The notes below the pieces were generated by a model. It was not told where the DNA came from, searched no databases, and was given only the letters and a program-made list of their open reading frames with translations. This document shows positions 2,812 through 18,655 of a DNA stretch of 64,000 bases, piece after piece. Each line of letters starts with the position of its first letter. The stretch's first letter is position 1. The DNA comes from Haladaptatus cibarius D43 (GTDB taxonomy: Archaea > Halobacteriota > Halobacteria > Halobacteriales > Haladaptataceae). A program made the translations under genes and the position numbers. The stretch is from positions 1,728,082-1,792,081 of the forward strand of contig NZ_JDTH01000002.1 of NCBI RefSeq assembly GCF_000710615.1, written 5' to 3'.

Positions 2812-4011
2812 ATGGTCAGAGACACCATAAACCACGAAGCGCCGACACGCAGGGAGTACGTCAAGTACGGCGGTGCGGTACTCGGCGGAAGTTTTCTTGC
2901 CGGGTGTACGAGCGACTCAGGGACGGAGGCAACATCGGCGACAACCGACACGGCGGCCTCGAACGACCAATCTGAAACTGGTCGGGACGCTTCTCACGCG
3001 GTTTCCATGGAACCAGTCGGCCGGGTCACGTTCGATTCGGTTCCCAAACAGTGGGTCGCATACGGCGGCGGCTACGCCGACATGGGCGTCGCGCTCGGCA
3101 AAGCGGACGGTATGACCGGCATCGGCGGCGTAGACCGCTATTACACCGCCGTGTACGACGAACTTCCCGGTGTGAGCGTCAACCGCCAGACGCTCGAAAA
3201 CAACGACTTGGGCGAGGCTGGCATGTCCAAGGAGATGTTCTACGAACTCGACAACGACGTCCACGTCATGGATCCGCAGATGCTCGTCAACTGGTTCGAT
3301 TGGAGCGAAACGGACGTCGAAGAAATCACGACGAACGTCGGCCCGTTCGTCGGCAACCTAATTTTCCGACGGGAAGACGACTGGCACGATTACCGATACT
3401 ACACCCTCTACGAAGCATTCGAGAAAATCGCACAACTGTTCGGAGAAGGGGGACGGTATCGAGCGTTCAAAACGCTTCACGACGAGTTCATTGCAGACAT
3501 CCAAAGCCAACTTCCGCCAAAAGACGACCGACCAAACGTCTTGCTCGTCTACGAAGGAAGCAATGAACCGGAGAAGTTCTCGCCGTATCGCCTCAACGAC
3601 AAGGGAACGAGCAAGAAACAGTGGCGCGACCTCGGCGTCACCGACGCGCTCGGAAGCACCGGTATCGATGGTATCAGCACCACAGACCGCGGGCGAATCG
3701 ATTACGAGACGATGCTGGAAATCGACCCCGACGTGATACTCCTGCGCGCCCACGAGCGACAGTCCGCCACCGAGTTCCGAAACACGGTTCTCGAATTTAT
3801 GCGAAACCATCCGGTTGCGAGTCGGTTGACAGCCGTGAAAAACGGCCGCGTCTACCGCGGCGGCTCCCTCTATCAAGGGCCGATTCACAACCTCTTTCTG
3901 ACCGAACGGGGAGCAAAGCAGTTGTATCCCGAGGTTTTCGGGGAAGTGACGGAAGACAACCAGCTATTCGACCGCCAACGGGTTGCAGACATCGTGAACG
4001 GGGAGTTCTGA
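2812..4011 (+). CDS. iron-siderophore ABC transporter substrate-binding lipoprotein
   Basis: Binds a ferric siderophore or similar iron chelate outside the cell and delivers it to an ABC permease. The 399-residue product starts with a Tat-type signal (RREYVKYGG) ending in the lipobox LAGC, so it is probably lipid-anchored. A Ser/Thr-rich linker follows, then a periplasmic-binding-protein (PF01497-like) fold with GRVTFDSVPKQWV, the long connecting helix near residues 200-240, and the C-terminal text DPDVILLRAH and VKNGRVYRGG. No permease or ATPase gene is adjacent, so partners must be encoded elsewhere. Two palindromic operators and a TATA box directly precede it, indicating repression by iron. 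A hairpin terminator follows. Confidence 0.9.
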   Translation: MVRDTINHEAPTRREYVKYGGAVLGGSFLAGCTSDSGTEATSATTDTAASNDQSETGRDASHAVSMEPVGRVTFDSVPKQWVAYGGGYADMGVALGKADGMTGIGGVDRYYTAVYDELPGVSVNRQTLENNDLGEAGMSKEMFYELDNDVHVMDPQMLVNWFDWSETDVEEITTNVGPFVGNLIFRREDDWHDYRYYTLYEAFEKIAQLFGEGGRYRAFKTLHDEFIADIQSQLPPKDDRPNVLLVYEGSNEPEKFSPYRLNDKGTSKKQWRDLGVTDALGSTGIDGISTTDRGRIDYETMLEIDPDVILLRAHERQSATEFRNTVLEFMRNHPVASRLTAVKNGRVYRGGSLYQGPIHNLFLTERGAKQLYPEVFGEVTEDNQLFDRQRVADIVNGEF

Positions 4012-4034
4012 GAAGAGACAGCAGGTACGGTCGC

Positions 4035-4069
4035 GGGTCGATTCCAGGGCGGAATCGACCCTCGTTTTT
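4035..4069 (+). terminator. hairpin terminator after the iron-binding-protein gene
   Basis: An 11-bp perfect stem (GGGTCGATTCC pairing with GGAATCGACCC, loop AGGGC) is followed four bases later by a run of five T. It lies 24 nt after the stop codon at 4011, as expected for termination of that transcript. Confidence 0.6.
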
Positions 4070-4144
4070 CCATCATGCGTTTGTAGACAATATTCTCGAA
4101 TCGGTGGACAGCATCCTGTTGCTCACGAATGTAGTTCGGTAGAA

Positions 4145-4159
4145 ATGGGCCCTATCGGA
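4145..4159. repeat. direct repeat, distal attachment-site copy
   Basis: ATGGGCCCTATCGGA is identical to 6456-6470, which is the 3' end of a tRNA with anticodon CAU plus its discriminator base. The copy here stands alone with no tRNA around it. A tRNA 3'-end duplication bounding a foreign-looking segment is the classic footprint of tyrosine-recombinase integration. Confidence 0.75.
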
Positions 4160-4375
4160 GCGTATTCAAAATATTCGGGATTTGCAGATATCTGTTTATA
4201 GGTACATAGGTATCTGAAACGGGCTATATAAAGAAGTGGGATTCATATTAAATATCATAGATCACATATTACCTACTAGAGAATATAATCATCGAGTATA
4301 TGAATATTGATGTGGATATTTACGATATAATATTATTATGGCAAAAGACATCGGAGATGGAGTTTTCAGCACCAC
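4160..4375. other. AT-rich non-coding stretch inside the element
   Basis: Very AT-rich sequence with many TATA-like words (for example around 4190-4210, 4250-4290 and 4320-4337). No credible ORF, tRNA or long inverted repeat was seen. It may hold promoters or an inactive replication or recombination region, but nothing specific can be supported. Confidence 0.5.
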
Positions 4376-4771
4376 CTATGGTGCAACGAATGCATCTCCA
4401 TAAAGTGGAATCATGGAGAGAAGAACCAGGATTGCACCGATAAGTGCAACTGCACCGGCTGCACGTCGGAGTCTGGACAGAGGAGTGGATAGGGACGTAA
4501 CGATGACGTATCCAGCAAGGACGATTACGATGGCTTGTAGGGTAAATTCAGCGTACGATGCGTAGAGTCCGAATTCTCCGGAACTAAAGATTAACACCAC
4601 TAGAGCACCCGAGAGGAATGTCGCTGTCCCTGCTACTGCGGTGGTCACGGTTCTGAAACCAACAGCCCTCGCGACAGTCACAGTCAAAATCACGTTGAGA
4701 GTGATTCTCACAGCGATAAGTGCAGCAAGGCCTAAAGGATTTGACACAGTTGGGAAGAGCCACTCCAACAT
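4376..4771 (-). CDS. small multi-pass membrane protein, unknown function
   Basis: A 131-residue protein from ATG 4771 with about four hydrophobic segments: ALIAVRITLNVILTVTVA near residues 17-34, TVTTAVAGTATFLSGALVVLIF at 41-62, FTLQAIVIVLAGYVIVTSL at about 76-94 and AAGAVALIGAILVLLSMIPL at about 104-123. A basic loop RLRRAA precedes the last segment, and there are few charged residues. I do not recognise a family. It lies inside the tRNA-bounded element, where small membrane proteins are common cargo. Intact reading frame and membrane topology support it as a real gene. Confidence 0.6.
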   Translation of the reverse strand: MLEWLFPTVSNPLGLAALIAVRITLNVILTVTVARAVGFRTVTTAVAGTATFLSGALVVLIFSSGEFGLYASYAEFTLQAIVIVLAGYVIVTSLSTPLSRLRRAAGAVALIGAILVLLSMIPLYGDAFVAP

Positions 4772-4885
4772 CTATGCGTATACTCCTTTGGAAGTACCTG
4801 TAGGCATCTTATTCTGCAATTTAGTCTCTCCTTTGGTGAATTTTACGTTATTCATATACTATACTTCTTAGTTTAGACTTTCCAT

Positions 4886-5831
4886 TCAAAATATGACTCC
4901 AAGCTTTCCGTTCGAAGATGGGTATGTCCCACCATTCCCGACATCTCGGTTCAGTGATGGACAAGCGATATCTTCCCATGTGCTGACGACTTCGCGGCGA
5001 GAATCTGCGAATCGCCACTGTTCATTACCGGGTACCCAACCGTGATCAGCAGGATCTCGGTGGAAAGCTCCGACTACCTCATAACCACCATAATAGTCGC
5101 TAGGGATATTATACAGTCGACCGTGCCACTGTTCCCCAACAACTAGACCACCCTCTTTCTTGCCATGTTTGTCTTCCTCCTTCGTTACGTAGCCATTGCT
5201 CGTATCGTACCCGATGTGTTTTGAGGTAGAGAGCCAGTAAATACTTCCCCAACCATTATTATTCATTTGCTGCTTGATATCCTTAGCATCCTTACCCAAA
5301 TTATACCACGCGACGTTGATTGGTGCAGTTCTCTCGTTAATCGACCCCGATTTGTATGTATAGAGAGGCCATTGTAAGTTCCTGGCCCATCAGGGTCAAT
5401 GATGCCCTGAGATGTCACGCCATCCTTCGACATCTGTTCTTTTTCCTGCTTTTCAGCACGCATATGTTGCTCAACAGTACCAAGTACCGCATCATCAGCG
5501 TATTCAACTGTAAATGCTCGATCTGGATTTCGGTACTGTTCTGGGATCGATTCACGAGGGAGAACTTCAGTTTCGAAACTAACCTTGCGACTGCCACCGT
5601 TTCGAGATTTTATATCAGAAGTATTAAATGCTCTCTACGCACAAACCCGTTGCTTTCTGAGTCCGGTGTGAAGTGGTATTTTCGCGTTCCGGACACATGT
5701 GCGGGGAGTTCCGATTTTGTATTGGTTCCCTTTTTACCAAGAACCGTCCCAGAGGCCATTGTCACTCCAATACCAGTAGCCACTGTTTTCATCGCACTTC
5801 TTCTAGTCATATCTTCTGGATTTTCATCCAT
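4886..5831 (-). pseudogene. Tat-exported protein broken by two frameshifts
   Basis: Read from ATG 5831, the frame begins with a Tat signal (MTRRSAMKTVATG, then a hydrophobic stretch and GTVLGKK). It is lost near 5631-5636, resumes in another frame (NTSDIKSRNGGSRKVSFETE onward), is lost again near 5362-5367, and resumes in a third frame that runs to 4886 (ERTAPINVAWYNLG and GWGSIYWLSTSKH). Joined, these parts give a protein of roughly 310 residues with a coherent composition. Both breaks fall at a six-base AGAGAG/CTCTCT tract, and removing two bases at each restores the frame. No family is recognised. The gene is probably inactive cargo of the element; sequencing error cannot be excluded. Confidence 0.65.
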
Positions 5832-5940
5832 ACATGATTTCCAGAACGTAACTAACTTATATATTTTTTATACTATTGTTTTAAATATAATGCGAAATGA
5901 GAAGTACCGGTTCGGGTCGTTCATGACGTACCTCGAATCG

Positions 5941-5997
5941 ATTGAGACGGTTGAACTCAAGTCTCAATGGTAAAGTCACGCCGCTGAACTTTACCAT
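5941..5997. repeat. two adjacent perfect inverted repeats
   Basis: ATTGAGAC (5941-5948) pairs with GTCTCAAT (5961-5968), and the inner TTGA-AC-TCAA is itself palindromic. The next repeat, ATGGTAAAGT (5967-5976) with ACTTTACCAT (5988-5997), shares two bases with the first, so the two stems are partly mutually exclusive. The position is in the non-coding part of the element, about 60 nt before a short ORF. This could be an operator, an attenuator-like RNA or a recombinase site. Confidence 0.6.
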
Positions 5998-6056
5998 CGG
6001 GTGGTAGATTTGGTGTCAGAAGTTCGAATACCCGTGATATCGTTGAGCGGCGGTTC

Positions 6057-6353
6057 GTGAAGACGACAAAAGCATCATCGATATTGGTAAAGAATCGTCA
6101 AATACAAGCAGAGACAACCCCCGGGAAGGAATCACGAACCGATGCGGTCACTCGGCGAGATTGGTGTACTCTCATCTTCGGCAGCCAACAGATGACGCAA
6201 AGTATTCGATTCCAGAATGTTGTCTTGCATAAGTATGGCCGAATCATCGATTACGACACTATTTACAATGCGTTGAAAAATATCGAGCGCTACCAGACGT
6301 TCGTCGTTGAAATGCGTGACTATCTCGATTCCATAGGAGCGTTCAACAATTGA
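6057..6353 (+). CDS. doubtful short ORF in the element, unknown function
   Basis: A 98-codon frame from GTG 6057. The frame is open upstream to about 5988 (SGGRFGVRSSNTRDIVERRF), so the gene may have been longer and lost its start: a stop codon lies just before, at 5985. The C-terminal half (YDTIYNALKNIERYQTFVVEMRDYL) looks like helical protein. No family is recognised; a truncated DNA-binding protein is possible. It lies next to the attachment site in the tRNA. Low confidence that it is expressed. Confidence 0.3.
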   Translation: MKTTKASSILVKNRQIQAETTPGKESRTDAVTRRDWCTLIFGSQQMTQSIRFQNVVLHKYGRIIDYDTIYNALKNIERYQTFVVEMRDYLDSIGAFNN

Positions 6354-6455
6354 GAGCACCGACACACTAACTGTATCAATCATCCAAGAGTGAAAATAAC
6401 CGCTACAGACGCTTACGGACGCGAAGCCGTTGGCTCAGAATCAACCAAAATCTGG

Positions 6456-6470
6456 ATGGGCCCTATCGGA
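6456..6470. repeat. direct repeat, attachment-site copy within the tRNA 3' end
   Basis: ATGGGCCCTATCGGA covers the discriminator base, the 3' half of the acceptor stem and part of the T stem of the minus-strand tRNA. It is identical to 4145-4159. Because it restores the tRNA 3' end, integration leaves the tRNA functional. Confidence 0.75.
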
Positions 6471-6531
6471 TTCGAACCAATGACCACCCGGTTATGAGCC
6501 GAGCGCTCTAACCAGACTGAGCTAAGGGCCC
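6457..6531 (-). tRNA. tRNA with anticodon CAU (elongator Met or Ile2)
   Basis: The full cloverleaf folds: acceptor GGGCCCT/AGGGCCC, D stem GCTC/GAGC, anticodon stem CTCGG/CCGGG with loop CTCATAA (anticodon CAT at 6496-6494), T arm ATTGG-TTCGAAT-CCGAT, and discriminator A at 6457. The G1-C72 pair excludes the usual archaeal initiator (A1-U72). Whether it is elongator Met or Ile2, whose C34 is modified to agmatidine by TiaS, cannot be settled from the sequence alone. Its 3' end is used as the integration site of the adjacent element. Confidence 0.92.
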
Positions 6532-6635
6532 TGTCGGCTATCGGTAATCTGTGACGCCTCTTTAACGTACCGGGTTTTGTGCGGATACCGGCAGAGAACA
6601 CAGCAACCACTCACCAAACAGTGAATCGAGAGAAG

Positions 6636-6708
6636 CGCCGCCGCCAGGGCTCGAACCTGGGACAACCTGGGTAACAACCAGGTGCTCTACCAACTGAGCT
6701 ACGGCGGC
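6636..6708 (-). tRNA. tRNA-Asn (GUU)
   Basis: The cloverleaf is complete: acceptor GCCGCCG/CGGCGGC, D stem GCTC/GAGC, anticodon stem CCTGG/CCAGG with loop TTGTTAC giving anticodon GTT, T arm CCAGG-TTCGAGC-CCTGG, and discriminator G at 6636. It lies about 105 nt upstream of the CAU tRNA on the same strand and is divergent from the CCA enzyme gene. The CCA end is not encoded. Confidence 0.95.
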
Positions 6709-6810
6709 TTCCGACTGCATTTCCACATAGACGGAGTTCTTTGATAGGGCTTTCGTTTTCGGCCAGTAGCATCGATACGCTTTCACGCATTCGTGGAAAA
6801 CCATCCCACG

Positions 6811-8160
6811 ATGGAACGCTTCGAGCAGGTCGTCGCGGAAGTCCGCAAGCAAGTCGAGCCGGACGGCGACGAGCGCGAACGGCTTCAGCAGGTCGCCCGG
6901 TCGTTGGCCGAACGAGCGGAAAACGCGATCGCCGACCTGCCGGTCGAGGCCGACGTGATACAGGTGGGAAGCACCGCCCGCGGAACGTGGACGAGCGGCG
7001 ACCGAGATATCGACCTGTTCGTTCGATTTCCGCCGGAACTCGACCGCGAGACGCTGGAATCGTACGGACTGCAAATCGGCCACGAAGTCCTGCCGGGGGG
7101 TCACGAGGAGTTCGCGGAACATCCCTACGTCAAGGGTGAATTCGAGGGGTTCGACGTTGACCTCGTTCCCTGCTATCGCGTCGAATCGGCGACGAAAATC
7201 CAGTCGGCGGTTGACCGCACGCCGTTTCACACCCAATACCTCGAAGCGCGATTGGACGACGAACTGGCGGGCGAAGTCCTGCTGTTCAAGCAGTTTTTGA
7301 AAGGAATCGGGGCATACGGAAGCGACCTCCGCACGGAGGGGTTTTCAGGCTATCTGGCAGAACTGCTCGTCCTCGAATACGGCGGTTTTCGGGCATTGCT
7401 CGAAGCGGTCGCGGACTGGCACCCGCCAGTTCGCTTCGACCCGGAAGACCACGGCACGGAAACGTTCGGCGACCCGCTGGTGGTCATCGACCCGACTGAC
7501 CCGGAGCGTAACGTCGCCGCGGTTCTCTCGCCGGAGAATTTCGCCCGACTCCAGCATTATGCACGCGACTTGCTCGCCAATCCGCGCGAATCGCTCTTTT
7601 TCGCCGATTCTCCCGACCCACTCACGTCCAGCGAGGTGAGCGAGTTCGTTGCTGATCGCGGAACCACACCGGTTGCGATTCGATTCGATGCGCCGGACGT
7701 AGTCGAAGACCAACTGTATCCGCAACTACAGAAATCGCTTTCCGGGGTTGCTGACGCGCTTTCCCGCCGTGGATTCGAACTCCTTCGAGCGGACTTGTTC
7801 GCGGACGAAACCGCGGTGCTGTTTTTCGAACTGTCCGTGCCCGAGCGTCCGGCAATCGAGCGTCACGACGGCCCGCCGGTTCACGTCCGCGCGCACGCGA
7901 CCGGATTTTACGAGAAGTACGACGCCGACGATTCGTATGGCCCGTTCATCGACGGCGACCGCTACGCGGTCGAGCGAAAGCGGGAGTTCACGACGGCAAT
8001 CGGGTTTCTGGAGAGTGATTCGGTCTTCGACGCCGCACTCGGCGTCCACGTCGAGAAGACGATGCGACGCGGATACGAGGTGCTTTCCGGCGGCGAAATC
8101 GGAGAACTCGCCGAGGAGTTCGGACGTGAACTCGCGCGGTATTTCGCCCCGAAACCGTAA
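6811..8160 (+). CDS. cca: archaeal CCA-adding enzyme (tRNA nucleotidyltransferase, class I)
   Basis: Adds or repairs the CCA end of tRNAs using CTP and ATP. From ATG 6811 the product has 449 residues, the usual length for class I archaeal enzymes. The nucleotidyltransferase signature GSTARGTW followed by DRDIDLF is at about residues 53-70, with a third carboxylate in VDLVPCY near residue 115. The tRNA-binding middle domain (LLFKQFLKGIGAYGSDLRTEGFSG) and a C-terminal region with HVRAHATGFYEKY follow. A GTG at 6793 is in frame, but the ATG begins the typical sequence MERFEQVVAEVRKQV. It is divergent from two tRNA genes that need its activity. Confidence 0.95.
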   Translation: MERFEQVVAEVRKQVEPDGDERERLQQVARSLAERAENAIADLPVEADVIQVGSTARGTWTSGDRDIDLFVRFPPELDRETLESYGLQIGHEVLPGGHEEFAEHPYVKGEFEGFDVDLVPCYRVESATKIQSAVDRTPFHTQYLEARLDDELAGEVLLFKQFLKGIGAYGSDLRTEGFSGYLAELLVLEYGGFRALLEAVADWHPPVRFDPEDHGTETFGDPLVVIDPTDPERNVAAVLSPENFARLQHYARDLLANPRESLFFADSPDPLTSSEVSEFVADRGTTPVAIRFDAPDVVEDQLYPQLQKSLSGVADALSRRGFELLRADLFADETAVLFFELSVPERPAIERHDGPPVHVRAHATGFYEKYDADDSYGPFIDGDRYAVERKREFTTAIGFLESDSVFDAALGVHVEKTMRRGYEVLSGGEIGELAEEFGRELARYFAPKP

Positions 8161-11616: not shown

Positions 11617-13128
11617 ATGGCAACTTCCGAACAAGAAGCTCACTCCACTTACGACGAACTCGAAACCAGAATCAAGCGAATTGCCAACATCGGAAACGCG
11701 ACGGGAATTCTCTACTGGGACCAGCAGACAAAGATGCCCGAAGAGGGTACACCAGCGCGCGCAAAACAACTTTCGGCGCTCCAGTCGATTACGCACGAAC
11801 TGCTGACCGAGGAGCGAACCGGCGAGTTGTTAGACGAACTCGAAAGCGAAGAACTGGACGACGAGCAGTCGGCGGTCGTCCGCGAAATCCGGCGACAGTA
11901 CGACCGGGCAATCGACGTTCCCAGCGACCTCGTCACGGAAATCGCCGAGACGAGTAGCGAGGCCCAACCGGCGTGGCAGGAAGCGAAAGCGGAAGACGAG
12001 TTCGAGACGTTCGAACCGTATCTCGACCGACTGCGCGAACTCCAAATCGAGCGAGCGGAGCACATCGACGCCAACAAAGACCCATACGAGGTCATGTTCG
12101 AGGACGGCGAACCGTACCTCCAACTGTCTACCGTCGAGCGAATTTTCGACGAACTCCGCGACGGATTGGTTCCGCTCATCGAAGACATTCAAGAGAACGG
12201 CGCGGACATCGCGGACGATGCTTTTTCGGGACGCTACGACACAGACACGCAGGAGGAAGTCGCGCGAGCGGCGCTCGACACACTCGACTACGACTGGAAT
12301 CGCGGTCGTCTCGACACCGCGCCCCACCCGTTCATGTCGGGCACGCAGTTCGACGCTCGGGTGACGACGCGATACAACGAAAACGACCCAATCGGGTCGC
12401 TTACGGCGACGATTCACGAGTTCGGTCACGCGAGTTACCAACTCGGCCTGCGGGACGACGAGTACGGAACGCCGCTCGGCGATTCGCGGAGTTCGGGCAT
12501 CCACGAATCCCAATCCCGGTTCTGGGAGAACCACGTCGGTCGGACGAAGGCGTTCTGGGAACTGTTCCTCCCGACGTTCAAAGACCACTTCCCGCAGGCT
12601 GACGACGTGACCGTGGCGGAGGCCTACGAAGCCGTCAATCAGGTATTCACGGACAACATGATTCGCGTGGAGGCCGACGAACTCACCTACCACATGCACA
12701 TCATTCTGCGATCGGAAATCGAACAGGAGTTCGTCGGTGGCGAGTTGGACGTAGAGGAGATTCCGGCCCGCTGGAACGAACTCATGGACGACTACCTCGG
12801 CGTCGTCCCGGAAACCGACTCGGAAGGCTGTTTGCAGGACATTCACTGGACGAGTCGATTCGGCGGCTTCCAGAATTACACGGTCGGCAGTGTCTTCGCG
12901 GCCCAACTCTGGGCGACCATCGAAGAAGAAATCGACGACCCGATGGAGCGCATTCGAGAGGGCGACTTCGCCCCAATCCGCGACTGGTTGACCGAGAACA
13001 TCCACCAGCAGGGGCAGACGTACACGACGGACGACCTCATCGAGGAAGCAACCGGCGAACCGCTCACCGCCGACTACTTCTTGGAGTACGTTGAGGAGAA
13101 GTACAGCGACATCTACGATTTGGACTAA
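11617..13128 (+). CDS. M32-family metallo-carboxypeptidase (copy 1)
   Basis: Thermostable-carboxypeptidase-like enzyme that removes C-terminal residues from peptides in the cytoplasm. The 503-residue product from ATG 11617 carries the zinc motif HEFGH (in TIHEFGHASYQLG), the family motif HPFMSGTQFDARVTTRY before it, HESQSRFWENHVGR after it and the C-terminal GCLQDIHW. No signal peptide. The in-frame TTG at 11587 is unlikely to be the start. A closely similar paralogue with the same length lies at 33763-35274 on the other strand. Confidence 0.95.
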   Translation: MATSEQEAHSTYDELETRIKRIANIGNATGILYWDQQTKMPEEGTPARAKQLSALQSITHELLTEERTGELLDELESEELDDEQSAVVREIRRQYDRAIDVPSDLVTEIAETSSEAQPAWQEAKAEDEFETFEPYLDRLRELQIERAEHIDANKDPYEVMFEDGEPYLQLSTVERIFDELRDGLVPLIEDIQENGADIADDAFSGRYDTDTQEEVARAALDTLDYDWNRGRLDTAPHPFMSGTQFDARVTTRYNENDPIGSLTATIHEFGHASYQLGLRDDEYGTPLGDSRSSGIHESQSRFWENHVGRTKAFWELFLPTFKDHFPQADDVTVAEAYEAVNQVFTDNMIRVEADELTYHMHIILRSEIEQEFVGGELDVEEIPARWNELMDDYLGVVPETDSEGCLQDIHWTSRFGGFQNYTVGSVFAAQLWATIEEEIDDPMERIREGDFAPIRDWLTENIHQQGQTYTTDDLIEEATGEPLTADYFLEYVEEKYSDIYDLD

Positions 13129-13216
13129 GACGGCGTTTTGGCTGTAACTTCGATTGAGCGTTTGGATGTCCGTTTTTCGGAATCCGGCGAACGGATGTGT
13201 TCGGGGATTTCTCCGC

Positions 13217-13828
13217 TTAGGATTCGGTTGAGCGCAGTCGTTCCCGAAAAAATCCGACGAGACTACCGACGTACCCGGTTCCCCAAATTGCCACGATGAG
13301 CGCACCGACCGTATTGAATATCATGTCGGTAACGATGTCATCAACGCCATAAACAGTAATTAGCCCGCCAAGAGCGAACTCCAAAATCTCCCAAAAGATA
13401 CCCATCGCGAGGACGAAAACGACGATGAATATCGTTCGAAACTCCGATGGAACGTCGATAGCATCGGAATGAAGTTCTAACGCGCGGAAAGACGCATAGC
13501 CAATTCCTGCGACAATCGTCGCCGAAACGGTGTGTGTCACCTCGTCGTACCACTGATATTGTGAATACAGGCTCAGTGAGCCAGCGGTGTGGAGAATCAT
13601 CGCGATGGTAATCCAGAGAACGAGTCCTGCATCCATCGCATAGCCATACTCCCGGCGGAGGATTGCCGGAAAGAGTGTTACGCCAAGCGCAATACCCGAG
13701 GTTATGGTCATCGACAGTTGTCCCGTCGTCAATCCGAAGACGAGGAACCCAAACAACACTCCTTGCAGAACGCGTACGATGACTCGTTCCTGCGAATCCG
13801 ACAGTCCCAGCGTGTCGGCTATCGTCAT
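13217..13828 (-). CDS. multi-pass membrane protein, DUF2238/YjdF-like
   Basis: A 203-residue protein from ATG 13828 with about six hydrophobic helices. It has a DEVTHTVSATIVAGIGY segment and FWEILEFALGG, a combination typical of the YjdF/DUF2238 membrane family of unknown function. The polar residues inside the helices (D, H, T, E) are the likely conserved positions. It overlaps the stop of the upstream gene by four bases (ATGA), which indicates translational coupling in a two-gene operon. Family assignment is moderately sure. Confidence 0.7.
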   Translation of the reverse strand: MTIADTLGLSDSQERVIVRVLQGVLFGFLVFGLTTGQLSMTITSGIALGVTLFPAILRREYGYAMDAGLVLWITIAMILHTAGSLSLYSQYQWYDEVTHTVSATIVAGIGYASFRALELHSDAIDVPSEFRTIFIVVFVLAMGIFWEILEFALGGLITVYGVDDIVTDMIFNTVGALIVAIWGTGYVGSLVGFFRERLRSTES

Positions 13829-14412
13829 TCTGTTTCCGTATTCGATGAGTGGTTGACGGCTCCCACGGGTTCGAATCTCCCGAAGAACCAACAAAAGAAT
13901 CCGCCGACTACGAATCCGACGACGGTGACGTGAACCATCTCGTTTTGCAGTTCGGTTTGCGAACGAAGAAACATCGTCTCAAACCACGAATCGGAAACGA
14001 ACTGGGCGATAATCCAGAGTGCCTCTATCGCCATCGTAGTCAAAACTCCAAAGCCGACAACGAACCAACTACTCAGTTCGACGGCTGTAAACACGTCGAT
14101 CTCGACGACGATAACGAATGCGAGCGCCGCGATTGCAAAATAACCTGCAATTTCAGGGTGTAATCCAGTCGCTAGAGCAACCACAGCGATAGCAGCGACG
14201 GACAGGACTGGCCACGAAATCAGTGCCGTCCAGTCGCGGGCTACCAGTGGTGGTAACGATGCCACGATGACGACGAATAGCGCGAAGCAGCCCCAAAGCA
14301 TAACGTTCGTGAGGAAACTCGTGATTGCCCCGAGAATGACTGTTCCTATCATCGTCCACCCCACGATAGCATTCACTCGTTTGCTGGTAACGAGTCGGTC
14401 GAGCGCCATCAT
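13825..14412 (-). CDS. multi-pass membrane protein coupled to the YjdF-like gene
   Basis: A 195-residue protein starting at tandem ATG codons (14412 or 14409), with about six hydrophobic segments. These include GWTMIGTVILGAITSFLTNVM, LISWPVLSVAAIAVVALATGL and a C-terminal VTVVGFVVGGFFCWFFG. A short acidic loop EIDVFTAVE lies mid-protein. Similar size and topology to its downstream neighbour suggest a heteromeric membrane complex or an old duplication; that is inference. I recognise no named family. Its stop codon overlaps the next start. Confidence 0.65.
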   Translation of the reverse strand: MMALDRLVTSKRVNAIVGWTMIGTVILGAITSFLTNVMLWGCFALFVVIVASLPPLVARDWTALISWPVLSVAAIAVVALATGLHPEIAGYFAIAALAFVIVVEIDVFTAVELSSWFVVGFGVLTTMAIEALWIIAQFVSDSWFETMFLRSQTELQNEMVHVTVVGFVVGGFFCWFFGRFEPVGAVNHSSNTETE

Positions 14413-14544
14413 CCGTCCGTTTGAGGCAGTAGCAGTTAAAACTGTTATCTACCTGTAGCGGTTCAAGGGTAGAACGTCCGCACTGGTCTGCATTTTAGCC
14501 TCCAAAACGGGGGCGAGTATCGTCCTCTCAGTGAATCTACCGCG

Positions 14545-14790
14545 TCACTCTTTTTCGTCGTCGTCGGTTTTAGCAACGGTTCCGACCACTTTTTTCGCCG
14601 CACTGGCCGGAATGTCTTCGGGGGTCGTCAACCATTCGCGGAGGAACACCATCAGCACGGCGATGGCGACGAACGCCCCGCCGAGAAGCGTCTGTCCGGC
14701 GATGAGGCGTTCGATACCGAGGAGTCCGATGGGGAGCGCGAACACCAGCGTCGCCGCCAGACTCACGGTGTCGAGAATACCGAGTTTCAT
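14545..14790 (-). CDS. small two-helix membrane protein (DUF7533-like)
   Basis: An 81-residue protein from ATG 14790 (MKLGILDTVSL). It has two membrane helices, roughly residues 8-29 and 37-54, then a cytoplasmic tail with REWLTTPEDIPASAAKKVV and an acidic-lysine end. This architecture is frequent in haloarchaea and fits DUF7533 as I remember it; the function is unknown. It is divergent from riboflavin synthase, with 123 nt between the start codons. Confidence 0.65.
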   Translation of the reverse strand: MKLGILDTVSLAATLVFALPIGLLGIERLIAGQTLLGGAFVAIAVLMVFLREWLTTPEDIPASAAKKVVGTVAKTDDDEKE

Positions 14791-14913
14791 ACCGCTTCTA
14801 TCCAACGACCGATTAAAAGTGCGACGCCACGGCGCTGGGTCGGTACCACGACAACCCCGCACCGACACCGCGTTCCGGAACGGTTTTCAACCGTCCGGCG
14901 TCACAGTTCTGTT

Positions 14914-15501
14914 ATGTTTACCGGAATCGTTGCGGAGGCTGGCGAGGTTCGTCGCGTCGAGGACGCGGAGGGCGGGCGACGACTGACAATTGCGGGGGAC
15001 GAAGCCCTCGCGGATGTCGAACACGGCGCGAGTATCAGCGTAAACGGCGCGTGCCTGACCGTCGAGGAGTTCGACGCCGAAACGTTCGAGGTGTTTCTGG
15101 CCGAGGAAACACTTTCGAAAACGTATCTCGGTGAGGTACGAGAGGGCGACGTCGTCAATCTAGAGCGGGCACTGCGGGCGGACGCGCGACTGGATGGCCA
15201 TTTCGTCCAAGGGCACGTCGATACGACGACAGAGGTCGTTGACGTTCGACAAGTCGGCGAGGATTGGGAGTACGAGTTTGTGATTCCGGACGGTTTCGGT
15301 CAGTACATCGTGAACAAGGGGTCGGTCGCGCTGGACGGCATCAGTCTCACAGTGGCCGAAAAAGGCGAGGACACGTTCACAGTGGCCATCATCCCGACGA
15401 CGCGCGACGTGACGAACCTCTCCGACAAAGGCTCCGGCGACCCGGTTCACCTCGAAGTAGACGTGCTGGCGAAGTATGCAGAACAACTGCTGGCCGAATA
15501 G
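14914..15501 (+). CDS. ribE: riboflavin synthase, alpha-chain (bacterial trimeric) type
   Basis: Converts two 6,7-dimethyl-8-ribityllumazine molecules to riboflavin plus a pyrimidine, the last step of riboflavin synthesis. The 195-residue product has the two lumazine-binding repeats: MFTGIVAEAGEV with SINGACLTVE-like text (here SVNGACLTVEEF) near residues 48-59, then QGHVD near residue 101 and the second-repeat GSVALDGISLTV. Many archaea use an unrelated pentameric enzyme, while haloarchaea carry this bacterial kind. No other rib gene is adjacent. Confidence 0.95.
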   Translation: MFTGIVAEAGEVRRVEDAEGGRRLTIAGDEALADVEHGASISVNGACLTVEEFDAETFEVFLAEETLSKTYLGEVREGDVVNLERALRADARLDGHFVQGHVDTTTEVVDVRQVGEDWEYEFVIPDGFGQYIVNKGSVALDGISLTVAEKGEDTFTVAIIPTTRDVTNLSDKGSGDPVHLEVDVLAKYAEQLLAE

Positions 15502-15526
15502 GGCTGGCGGAATAGGGCAGACGGAG

Positions 15527-16687
15527 CTACTTTCGGTCGTATCCGAACGGATCGTCGTCCCAAATCGAGTCGGTCTCGTCCGCTGAATCGTTCGAATCGT
15601 CGGTTTCGGCGGTGTTTAGTTCGCTGACCTCTGCACCGTCAACCATTTTCCTCTTTTCGCCCGTTCGTCCAGTTTCTGCGACTTGACTGCCCTCACCGAC
15701 GCCGAAGGTTACCGAATCGTGGTGGCCCGTTTGTTCGTACAGGTCGCGGTAGCGGTCGAGTTTCCGATAGAGTAGATAGCCGAAAAAGCCGTCGTAGATG
15801 AAGACGAAGACGATGTAGGCCATCACGGGCGTGACTGATGGATACACTAACGACGCCAGACCGGGGACGAACCCGACCAACGTGTTGTACGTGGCGTGGA
15901 TGACCGCCGCGATGAACAGACCCTTGACGACGATTGGCCCGGCGTTTTCGCGATTGAACTTCGCCAGTCCGAGGTAGTAGCCCGCGAAGGCAGAGTAGAT
16001 GACGTGGCCCGGCCCGGCAAACAACCGAAAAACGGCGGTCTGCCCGGCTTGCAAGAGTGGGTCGGTGCCCGAGGAGTCAAGCACCCCCTGACTGATGTAG
16101 AGGGCGTTCTCGATGGTTGCAAAGCCTAGTCCGGCCATCGCGCCGTACACCGCACCGTCAATGACGGCGTCGAATCGGTCGCTCCGAAAGGCGAACAGGC
16201 GTACCGCGAGCAACTTCACGGTTTCCTCGATTGGCCCGACGACGATGTAGAAAAACAGCGCCGACCCGACGAGCGGAATCCACGAGAACAGCGGTTGCGT
16301 GTAGGAGTTGAAAATCGCCGCGAATCCGGCGAACAGCACGCCGAGGAGGAACGTTCCAACGAGGAGCGGGAGCGGTTCGGACATCGTCACGTCGGCGTGC
16401 CAGATGTAGGCCGCGAGGGCGAACGCGGGGACGACCGAAAGGAGAACGAACACTGCGACCCATGGGTTGGATGGGTCGGTTATCGCCGCGAGCCCTCCGA
16501 GTGCGAACTGCACGAGGAGAATCGCAATTGCGAGGAGAATAATGAATGCCCGCGCCGAGGCGACGAGTAGTCCGTAGAATTTCGTGGCGAACCAGTCCAA
16601 ACGCGACCGTTCTTCCCACGTCGCAATGTCGTACAAATCGACCGAGTCGTCGGTTCCGCGAGCGACAGGGTCACGATTCTCGTCCAT
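15527..16687 (-). CDS. PrsW-family intramembrane metalloprotease
   Basis: A 386-residue membrane protein related to PrsW (PF13367), the protease that cuts anti-sigma factors in bacteria; the archaeal substrates are unknown. The core has the glutamate pair in GPIEETVKLLAVR, the histidine in GHVIYSAFAGYYLG, and HATYNTLVGFVPG. About eight membrane helices lie between residues 45 and 300. A long hydrophilic acidic tail (about 75 residues, ending DDDPFGYDRK) follows. ATG 16687 (MDENRDPVAR) is preferred over the in-frame GTG at 16702. It converges on riboflavin synthase with 25 nt between. Confidence 0.85.
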   Translation of the reverse strand: MDENRDPVARGTDDSVDLYDIATWEERSRLDWFATKFYGLLVASARAFIILLAIAILLVQFALGGLAAITDPSNPWVAVFVLLSVVPAFALAAYIWHADVTMSEPLPLLVGTFLLGVLFAGFAAIFNSYTQPLFSWIPLVGSALFFYIVVGPIEETVKLLAVRLFAFRSDRFDAVIDGAVYGAMAGLGFATIENALYISQGVLDSSGTDPLLQAGQTAVFRLFAGPGHVIYSAFAGYYLGLAKFNRENAGPIVVKGLFIAAVIHATYNTLVGFVPGLASLVYPSVTPVMAYIVFVFIYDGFFGYLLYRKLDRYRDLYEQTGHHDSVTFGVGEGSQVAETGRTGEKRKMVDGAEVSELNTAETDDSNDSADETDSIWDDDPFGYDRK

Positions 16688-16817
16688 GGCGGGAGTTCGC
16701 ACGGGCAGAGAGTAAATCGTTCGGCAAGTAAACCTTAAACACCTTATATGAAATTATATACCATAAACAAATGTAGGGTTGCGTTTATTAGGGAGGACTG
16801 TCGATTCGTGACACACG

Positions 16818-17015
16818 ATGACACCCACGAGTCACAGCCGAGGAATTATGTACTCGGCACCGCCGAAAGAATCGACACGGAAAGACACACGAGAAGAGAA
16901 TAGCGAGGCAGTAGATGCCGAAGAAGTAGAGGTCGAGGACGACAGATGGGTGGATGAACAAATCACACCCGGCACCGACACGAACTGGACGGGTGCCATC
17001 CCCGCAGACGACTGA
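16818..17015 (+). CDS. possible small acidic protein
   Basis: A 65-codon frame from ATG 16818 (a second ATG at 16848 would give 55 residues), rich in Glu and Asp: AVDAEEVEVEDDRWVDE. TATA-like sequence is seen near 16745-16760 and a GGGAGG lies at 16789-16794. The composition fits haloarchaeal protein and not random frame, but no family is recognised. It precedes a structured intergenic element and fau-1 on the same strand. Confidence 0.4.
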   Translation: MTPTSHSRGIMYSAPPKESTRKDTREENSEAVDAEEVEVEDDRWVDEQITPGTDTNWTGAIPADD

Positions 17016-17072
17016 AGCAGACGGTTCCAGACCGACGACTGCGACACCGCCGACATCACGACGACCGACCTC

Positions 17073-17164
17073 GTCACGCTGAAAACCCCTGCACACCAAC
17101 CGGGAGGTATGACTCCCCAGCGCGACACGCTCGCCTCCCGCGCGACACTCGCTTTCAGCGTGAC
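17073..17164 (+). ncRNA. nested inverted repeat, possible structured RNA before fau-1
   Basis: GTCACGCTGAAA (17073-17084) pairs perfectly with TTTCAGCGTGAC (17153-17164). Inside it CGGGAGG (17101-17107) pairs with CCTCCCG (17134-17140), giving a closing 12-bp stem, internal loops, a 7-bp inner stem and a 26-nt apical loop. The imperfect repeat GCGCGACACgCTCGC / GCGCGACACTCGC lies within. It ends 60 nt before the FAU-1 start codon. It could be a small RNA, a 5'-UTR element read by FAU-1 itself or a relic of a small mobile repeat. Known families were not recognised. Confidence 0.45.
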
Positions 17165-17224
17165 AACCATCCGAACGCAGACCGCCCGAACACCAACCAC
17201 CCCCCGTTTTTCCGAACACCACCG

Positions 17225-18655
17225 ATGAGTTTCGACAGTCGAATCCGCGTTCGCGGTATCTACACCACCGCACTCACACACCTGCTCGTCGACGATTTCG
17301 ACGTAGTGCAAGCTTCGCCACCAATCCAGCGACGGTTCGATTCCAAGTTCGAAACCGGCGAATACGACGCGACGGTCGAAACGACCGACGACCGGCAGGG
17401 AATCGGTCTGTTCGGCGATCAGGATACAGTGAAAACAGTGGGCGATCGACTGGCGGAAATCGGCATCGACACCTTCCACTGGGACGACCCGACCCCCCGC
17501 GGCGCGCTGTTCGACGGCGTCGTCAGCGAAACCCTCGGAAGCGGTGCGGTCGTGAGCCTCGGCAAACGAGACGGCTTTCTTCCCTTCCGGAAAATCGACC
17601 GCAGAATCGACGAAGGCGATCACGTTCGCGTGCAGGTTCACACCCCTGCACCGCCGTGGTCGCGCGACAGACCCCTGCTCGGAACCGACGTACAGGTGTT
17701 CGGCGGCGTGGCAAGTCTCTCGAAAGGCGTGAACCGCGTCGTCGCCAGCGCGCCCGACGACGCCAGCAGGCGCGAACTCGCGCGAACGACCGAGATGCTC
17801 CCGACCGACGTACCCGATGAATGGGGCGTTCGATGGGAGTACGGCGCGAACGAGGCCGAAATCGGGGAGATGGATGCCGCGCTTTCCGATGCGGTCGAAC
17901 GCGCCGAAGACATCGACGGCGCGCTCAGAGAATCCGCGGATTCTTCGAGCGACACAGACGTGCCTCAGACGATTGCGGAACCCGATTCTACTGCATGGCT
18001 CTGGTTCGGCCGAGAATCCCGGTTCGAACTGGACGAGTTCCGACGGGAAGTCACGACGACCTTGCCCGGCCACCACCGAATCAAGGCCGCGGACGATGCC
18101 GCGAGCGGGGCGGTCGATTTCGCGGAAGACCTCTACGAACCCGGCGACGAGGTTCCCATCGGGGCGACCCTCCGGCAGTTCGGCCCGGAAGAGGACGGCG
18201 AAGTCTTCATCGACCACGGGAAGCCGGACGGCCGGTGTTTCTCGCTCGGGAAGGGCGACGTGGCGGAGCGCGACCCAGAGTCCGGCAAGTATACCATTCG
18301 CCGGAAGATGCAGGGGTCGGGAACCTACGACGCCATCGGCACCGACCGCGAGGCGGGCGACGTGGCAATCACCAAATTCCGCGAAGGTCGTTGGTGGTAC
18401 CCCACGGCCTACCGGAGCGAGGACGGCGAGTCGAAAGGTACCTACGTCAACGTCTGCACGCCCGTCGAACTGTTCCCGCGTTCCGTGCGCTACGTGGATT
18501 TACACGTCGATGTCGTAAAGCGCCCCGACGGAAGCGTAGAGCGAGTCGATGACGACGAACTGGATTCGGCGGTCGAAGCGGGCCATATTTCGGCGAACCT
18601 GGCCGACAAAGCGCGGAGCGTTGCGGCGAGCGTGGAGAAAGTACTCGGAAAATAG
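17225..18655 (+). CDS. ribonuclease FAU-1 family (S1-like and DUF402 domains)
   Basis: Archaeal homologue of the RNA-binding core of RNase E/G, reported to act in rRNA maturation. The 476-residue product has an S1-like segment at about residues 90-150 (GALFDGVVSETLGSGAVVSLGKRDGF and later HVRVQVHTP). It also has a C-terminal DUF402-type domain at about 320-430, with DHGKPDGRCFSLGKGDV, then VAITKFREGRWWYPTAYRSE. ATG 17225 (MSFDSRIRVRGIY) is the family-like start. The gene stands alone on its strand after the nested inverted repeat; this neighbourhood makes autoregulation through RNA binding worth considering. Confidence 0.88.
   Translation: MSFDSRIRVRGIYTTALTHLLVDDFDVVQASPPIQRRFDSKFETGEYDATVETTDDRQGIGLFGDQDTVKTVGDRLAEIGIDTFHWDDPTPRGALFDGVVSETLGSGAVVSLGKRDGFLPFRKIDRRIDEGDHVRVQVHTPAPPWSRDRPLLGTDVQVFGGVASLSKGVNRVVASAPDDASRRELARTTEMLPTDVPDEWGVRWEYGANEAEIGEMDAALSDAVERAEDIDGALRESADSSSDTDVPQTIAEPDSTAWLWFGRESRFELDEFRREVTTTLPGHHRIKAADDAASGAVDFAEDLYEPGDEVPIGATLRQFGPEEDGEVFIDHGKPDGRCFSLGKGDVAERDPESGKYTIRRKMQGSGTYDAIGTDREAGDVAITKFREGRWWYPTAYRSEDGESKGTYVNVCTPVELFPRSVRYVDLHVDVVKRPDGSVERVDDDELDSAVEAGHISANLADKARSVAASVEKVLGK

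What the first reader, a model, noticed from the sequence alone, without database searches (positions are those of the whole stretch)
4145..6470. Tiny AT-rich element integrated at a CAU tRNA with a perfect 15-bp duplication
The 15 bases ATGGGCCCTATCGGA at the tRNA 3' end recur 2.3 kb away, and the interval between them is AT-rich with unrecognised genes and no integrase. Established: archaeal tyrosine recombinases use tRNA 3' ends and leave such repeats. Inference: the element is a non-autonomous satellite or a decayed remnant. It is small, and its cargo (membrane protein plus Tat-exported protein) is unnamed.
Basis: partly seen in the sequence, partly recalled or inferred. Interest (0 to 1): 0.78.

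Follow-up and report, generated by a model that had tools for sequence, protein, structure and literature searches.

The report
Decayed mini-element at a methionine tRNA
A 2.3-kb AT-rich DNA segment has inserted into the end of a methionine tRNA gene of a salt-loving archaeon (Haladaptatus), most likely as the worn-down remains of an integrating virus or plasmid of the known SNJ2 type; it is real but fairly ordinary.

Summary
The 15-mer occurs exactly twice in the whole genome: at the 3' end of a tRNA-Met(CAU) gene and 2,311 bp away. The interval is 45% GC against about 59% around it. A sister species (G003) has the empty site: its two colinear flanks overlap by exactly these 15 bases.

The site can be named. 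SNJ2 and six integrated elements in other haloarchaea use the same tRNA end and a 13-14 bp core. All six carry one family of tyrosine integrase (69% identical to SNJ2's in the one compared) just inside the outer core. The window segment has that att site but no integrase.

Two of its three genes are broken: a Tat-exported protein (three frames) and a HepT toxin gene. Only a 131-aa membrane protein is open. The same genome holds a parallel case at tRNA-Ile: 2.2 kb, AT-rich, with an integrase fragment.

Best reading: a decayed SNJ2-type integrative element, not a proven satellite. A more unusual side finding is a recurrent hairpin 'echo' of the tRNA-Met 3' end about 100-142 bp downstream of the gene in several haloarchaeal families.

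The parts
6457..6531 (-). tRNA-Met(CAU), elongator type, restored target gene
   Evidence: ARAGORN, Rfam RF00005 67.6 bits; intron-bearing orthologues
6456..6470 (.). inner att core (attR), within the tRNA 3' end
   Evidence: exact 15-mer; empty-site overlap in G003
4145..4159 (.). outer att core (attL), displaced copy of the tRNA 3' end
   Evidence: exact 15-mer; only other copy in the genome
4160..6455 (.). inserted AT-rich segment, absent from G003 and G004
   Evidence: GC 45%; colinear flanks without it in G003; different content at this place in G004
4376..4771 (-). 131-aa membrane protein, four hydrophobic peaks, the only intact gene of the segment
   Evidence: open frame; 54% identical homologue in G017, found in 34 of 391 genomes; hydropathy and third-position excess
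4886..5831 (-). broken gene for a Tat-signal exported protein (about 310-360 aa in relatives), in three frames
   Evidence: intact relatives in other haloarchaea
6024..6353 (+). decayed HepT (DUF86) toxin gene: start and MNT partner missing, two frameshifts
   Evidence: plasmid DUF86 genes 67-69% DNA identity; 81% to G007; frame changes by tblastx against the intact MNT-HepT pair of G007; Pfam HepT-like E 0.012, below cut-off
6380..6455 (.). tRNA-proximal arm ('A' type), shared with the tRNA-Met flank of G001, G006 and G008
   Evidence: 22/30 to the outer flank in G069 and 19/30 to the inner arm of the SNJ2-type element in G046

Best explanation
The segment 4145-6470 is the remains of an integrative element (virus or plasmid) that entered the tRNA-Met(CAU) gene by site-specific recombination between a 14-bp core in its attP and the tRNA 3' end, catalysed by an SNJ2-type tyrosine integrase. 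The element's own copy of the tRNA end restored the gene, and the original end was displaced to 4145. Shown: the core pair, the restored tRNA, the empty site in a sister species, the identical target and core boundary of SNJ2-type elements elsewhere, the broken genes. Inferred: that an SNJ2-type integrase did it, and that the integrase and replication genes were later lost by deletion. What is left is a membrane-protein gene, a broken exported-protein gene and a broken HepT gene. It is probably no longer mobile.
For: Empty site with 15-base overlap in G003, with an 18-kb colinear left flank at 92%. All six long core-bounded elements found at this tRNA in the order (G046, G065, G271, G257, G032, G069) carry an integrase of one family about 50-160 bp inside the outer core; the one compared with phages is 69% identical to the SNJ2 and 68% to the HHPV4 integrase. 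SNJ2 attP holds TGGGCCCTGACGG next to its integrase, in line with the 13-bp att and tRNA-Met target in the literature (PMC8371274, PMC5867852). In G046 and G065 the outer core ends at the same base as here. A-arm resemblance. Broken Tat and HepT genes. Parallel 2.2-kb relic at tRNA-Ile in the same genome with an integrase fragment, and an intact-looking 6-kb SNJ2-type element at tRNA-Ala.
Against: No integrase or integrase trace in the segment itself. No full-length element with related content was found at this tRNA in Haladaptatus (no integrase within 20 kb of it in G001-G008). The A-arm also occurs beside the tRNA in relatives without the segment (G001, G006), so it could be an old chromosomal flank rather than an attP arm, which leaves the loss-in-G003 reading open. 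No strain-level empty site was available.
Confidence: 0.75

Rival explanations
1. A non-autonomous satellite: the element never had an integrase and is moved in trans by an SNJ2-type integrase of a co-resident virus or plasmid.
For: It keeps both cores and has no integrase. The genome holds three intact SNJ2-type integrases elsewhere. A second mini-element of 2.2 kb with similar cargo logic (Tat protein plus small membrane protein) sits at tRNA-Ile.
Against: Two of its three genes are broken, which fits decay. The tRNA-Ile mini-element has an integrase fragment, so it did have an integrase once. The resident integrases belong to elements with other cores: no further copy of this core exists in the genome. 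No second copy of the element was found anywhere.
Confidence: 0.12
2. The segment is ancestral, and G003 and G004 lost it by deletion between the 15-base repeats; the A-arm is the native flank of the tRNA.
For: The A-type flank adjoins the tRNA in G001 and G006 and the outer copy in G008, so it may predate the G000/G003/G004 split. A precise deletion between the cores gives the same empty site.
Against: By identity G000 and G003 are sisters and G004 is more distant, so loss needs two events and gain needs one. It does not explain where the outer core came from. The flank types A, B and C occur in different orders relative to one another in different genomes, as expected of arms that arrive with insertions.
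Confidence: 0.08
3. No element: the second 15-mer is a shortened form of the hairpin 'echo' of the tRNA end seen in relatives, and unrelated AT-rich DNA accumulated between.
For: Second tRNA 3' ends 120-142 bp downstream occur in G004, G005, G007 and G008 and at about 101-113 bp in other families.
Against: All echoes compared run on into TTCGAA and can pair with an upstream GGATTCGAA-like arm; the outer copy here stops after 14 tRNA bases, as in G046 and G065. G003 shows the exact joined site with no echo.
Confidence: 0.04

Closest known systems
SNJ2 (Betapleolipovirus SNJ2) and SNJ2-type integrative elements of haloarchaea
   Same: Target tRNA-Met, core at the tRNA 3' end (SNJ2 attP TGGGCCCTGACGG), tRNA restored, element on the 3' side (PMC8371274, PMC5867852)
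   Different: No integrase, no pleolipovirus genes, 2.3 kb instead of 17 kb for SNJ2 and 6.5-56 kb for the other elements
tRNA-gene genomic islands in general (Islander type, PMC4383910)
   Same: Restored target gene and displaced fragment mark the ends
   Different: No integrase gene inside
2.2-kb tRNA-Ile mini-element of the same genome (L217 9649-11825)
   Same: Size, AT-richness, tRNA 3' repeat, cargo of a Tat-signal protein followed by a small membrane protein
   Different: Unrelated sequence; 21-bp repeat; keeps an integrase fragment; its Tat protein is intact
MNT-HepT toxin-antitoxin modules
   Same: HepT C-terminal part, 81% DNA identity to the G007 pair
   Different: Antitoxin gene and HepT start missing, frameshifts: not functional

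Membership tests
SNJ2-type integrative element | integration at the 3' end of a tRNA gene with a short core (13-14 bp or longer) and restored tRNA | tested here: met
   SNJ2 attP core
SNJ2-type integrative element | SNJ2-family tyrosine integrase gene just inside the outer core | tested here: not met
   no PF00589 match in the region; no match of the A1 integrase model there
SNJ2-type integrative element | precise insertion shown by an empty site | tested here: met
   G003
Pleolipovirus provirus | pleolipovirus core genes (spike, VP3-like, NTPase) | tested here: not met
   no blastn match in 50,697 phage records; no PHROG match of the two cargo proteins searched
Satellite element | intact element mobilised by a helper integrase | not testable with these tools
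   needs an excision assay; broken genes speak against it
MNT-HepT toxin-antitoxin system | intact HepT with adjacent MNT antitoxin | tested here: not met
   truncated, frameshifted HepT, no MNT gene

The most novel reading that the evidence does not exclude
The segment and the tRNA-Ile mini-element of the same genome belong to a class of about 2.2-kb mini-elements that carry an exported protein plus a small membrane protein (possibly a secreted antimicrobial protein and its immunity protein) and are spread in trans by SNJ2-type integrases.
Probability: 0.07. Interest if true: 0.6.

Novelty: new member of a known kind. Interest (0 to 1): 0.3.

Why it matters
It ties an anonymous AT-rich patch to a named integrase family and site, and suggests how such elements wear down: an intact-looking 6-kb element, a relic with an integrase fragment and an integrase-free relic are all present in one genome. 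It also marks the haloarchaeal tRNA-Met 3' end as a repeatedly used insertion site with a fast-changing flank.

Tried and rejected
Phage records (blastn) and viral contigs gave no relative of the segment; a wider tRNA-end pattern in viral contigs returned 44 contigs that were not pursued. Plasmid blastn with the A-arm gave only chance hits, and the phage search with the tRNA gave mainly phage tRNA genes. A full-length element of the same content at the same tRNA in Haladaptatus was sought and not found. The idea that the A-arm is unique to the element was dropped: it is also beside the tRNA in G001 and G006. Cargo function: no family above its cut-off in Pfam, PHROGs or NCBIfam for the membrane or exported protein; the exported family reminded me of LssY-C-like domains, from memory and untested. 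The exported/membrane pair is adjacent in a few other haloarchaea at places without tRNA genes, so it is not a mobile-element hallmark. The SNJ2 integrase paper (PMC5861418) is not held.

Full report
Observation. The 15-mer is exact at 4145-4159 and 6456-6470 and has no third copy in the genome with up to one mismatch. It covers the last 14 bases of tRNA-Met(CAU), minus strand 6457-6531, plus one neighbouring A. The interval is 45% GC in a 55-62% GC neighbourhood. Orthologous genes with an intron mark it as the elongator Met tRNA (general knowledge of haloarchaeal tRNA introns). Two genomes with the same tRNA flank could be named as Haladaptatus, and the held relatives of the same genus include contigs of the same lengths, so the genus is Haladaptatus.

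Empty site. In the sister genome G003, window 2812-4159 aligns at 89% and window 6456-8160 at 93%, and the two matches overlap by exactly the 15 bases. The three junctions written out agree: G003 flank-core-tRNA; window flank-core-segment; window segment-core-tRNA. The left flank is colinear over 18 kb at 92%. G004, more distant, also lacks the segment but has a 142-bp module there. One gain in the window's lineage is the simplest history.

What uses this site. A survey of TGGGCCCTNNCGGA in 117 genomes of the order showed same-orientation pairs 6-56 kb apart at tRNA-Met in G046, G065, G271, G257 and G069; G032 has one at a tRNA with the same 3' end (its intron-bearing gene is called Gln by the program). 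In all six, an integrase of one family lies about 50-160 bp inside the outer core. Of the five whose composition was computed, the elements of G046, G271 and G257 are clearly AT-richer than the host, that of G032 slightly and that of G065 not. The integrase of G065 is 69% identical to that of SNJ2 and 68% to that of HHPV4. The SNJ2 genome has TGGGCCCTGACGG about 50 bp from its integrase, preceded by an arm nearly identical to that of G032. The literature gives tRNA-Met and a 13-bp att for SNJ2 (PMC5867852; PMC8371274). In G046 and G065 the repeat ends at the same base as in the window. The tRNA-proximal arm of the window resembles the inner arm in G046 (19/30) and the outer flank in G069 (22/30), reached by none of 20,000 shuffles, while the other arms do not stand out in this ungapped comparison.

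Content. Left to right: 216 bp without coding sense; a 131-aa membrane protein (4376-4771 minus), intact, 54% identical in G017, with more differences at third codon positions (44, 39, 70); a Tat-signal exported protein in three frames (4886-5831 minus), whose family occurs in 27 of 391 genomes, own included; and a HepT fragment (6024-6353 plus), 81% identical in DNA to the intact MNT-HepT pair of G007 but truncated and frameshifted. The exported/membrane pair is also adjacent in G017, G162 and G268 in regions without tRNA genes, so it is ordinary host-type cargo. Nothing viral was found.

Same genome, other stages. The integrase model finds three intact SNJ2-type integrases and one fragment in the window's genome. 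One intact copy ends a 6.05-kb, 46% GC element with a 28-bp tRNA-Ala repeat. The fragment lies in a 2.18-kb, 48% GC element with a 21-bp tRNA-Ile repeat that also holds a Tat-signal protein followed by a 75-aa membrane protein. This gives a plausible decay series and is the main reason to prefer 'relic' over 'satellite'. The tRNA-Ala element shares nothing with the segment beyond weak tblastx noise, and the tRNA-Ile one nothing at all.

The tRNA flank. In nine Haladaptatus genomes three flank types occur next to the tRNA end, in different orders relative to one another. Four genomes have a second tRNA end 120-142 bp away. Similar echoes at 101-113 bp occur in G029, G099, G274 and G257. All eight compared end in GTTCGAATCCG..A.GG.CCA and can fold with an upstream GGATTCGAA-like arm into a long hairpin. 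Rfam has no family for them (five loci searched). The folding is predicted on a sequence that is partly a tRNA copy, so it is a lead only.

Limits. No strain-level data; one genome per species. The integrase assignment rests on shared site and core, not on a gene in the segment. The A-arm also flanks the tRNA in relatives without the segment, so a loss history is not excluded.

Verdict. Real, well bounded, and explained as a decayed member of a known kind. Interest 0.3.

Noticed in passing
L063/L068 (G004), L064/L069 (G005), L066/L070 (G007), L067/L071 (G008), L192 (G029), L193 (G099), L194 (G274), L188 (G257): A second copy of the tRNA-Met 3' end (about 20 bases) lies 101-142 bp downstream of the gene and can pair with an upstream GGATTCGAA-like arm into a long hairpin; present in several haloarchaeal families, no Rfam family matched.
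   Followed up: partly
L217 9649-11825 (G000 C1): 2.2-kb AT-rich mini-element at tRNA-Ile(GAT) with 21-bp repeat, SNJ2-type integrase fragment, Tat-signal Cys-containing 162-aa protein and 75-aa membrane protein; the Tat protein has no relative in eight other Haladaptatus genomes or in the plasmid collection.
   Followed up: partly
L214 3795-9842 (G000 C2): Intact-looking 6.05-kb AT-rich element at tRNA-Ala with 28-bp repeat and SNJ2-type integrase.
   Followed up: partly
L056 about 12836-18226 (left of the segment): A 5.4-kb block with the FecB-like gene lies between a conserved neighbour and tRNA-Met in G000, G003 and G004 but not in G001 and G002; no core copy at its left end.
   Followed up: partly
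L035 15205-15773 (G001): About 0.5 kb of 42% GC DNA next to the A-type flank and tRNA-Met, possibly the end of another relic; no similarity to the window segment beyond the arm.
   Followed up: no
tRNA-Met orthologues in L012, L013, L019, L025, L029 and others: The tRNA-Met intron is present in some Haladaptatus and relatives and absent in others, including the window.
   Followed up: no
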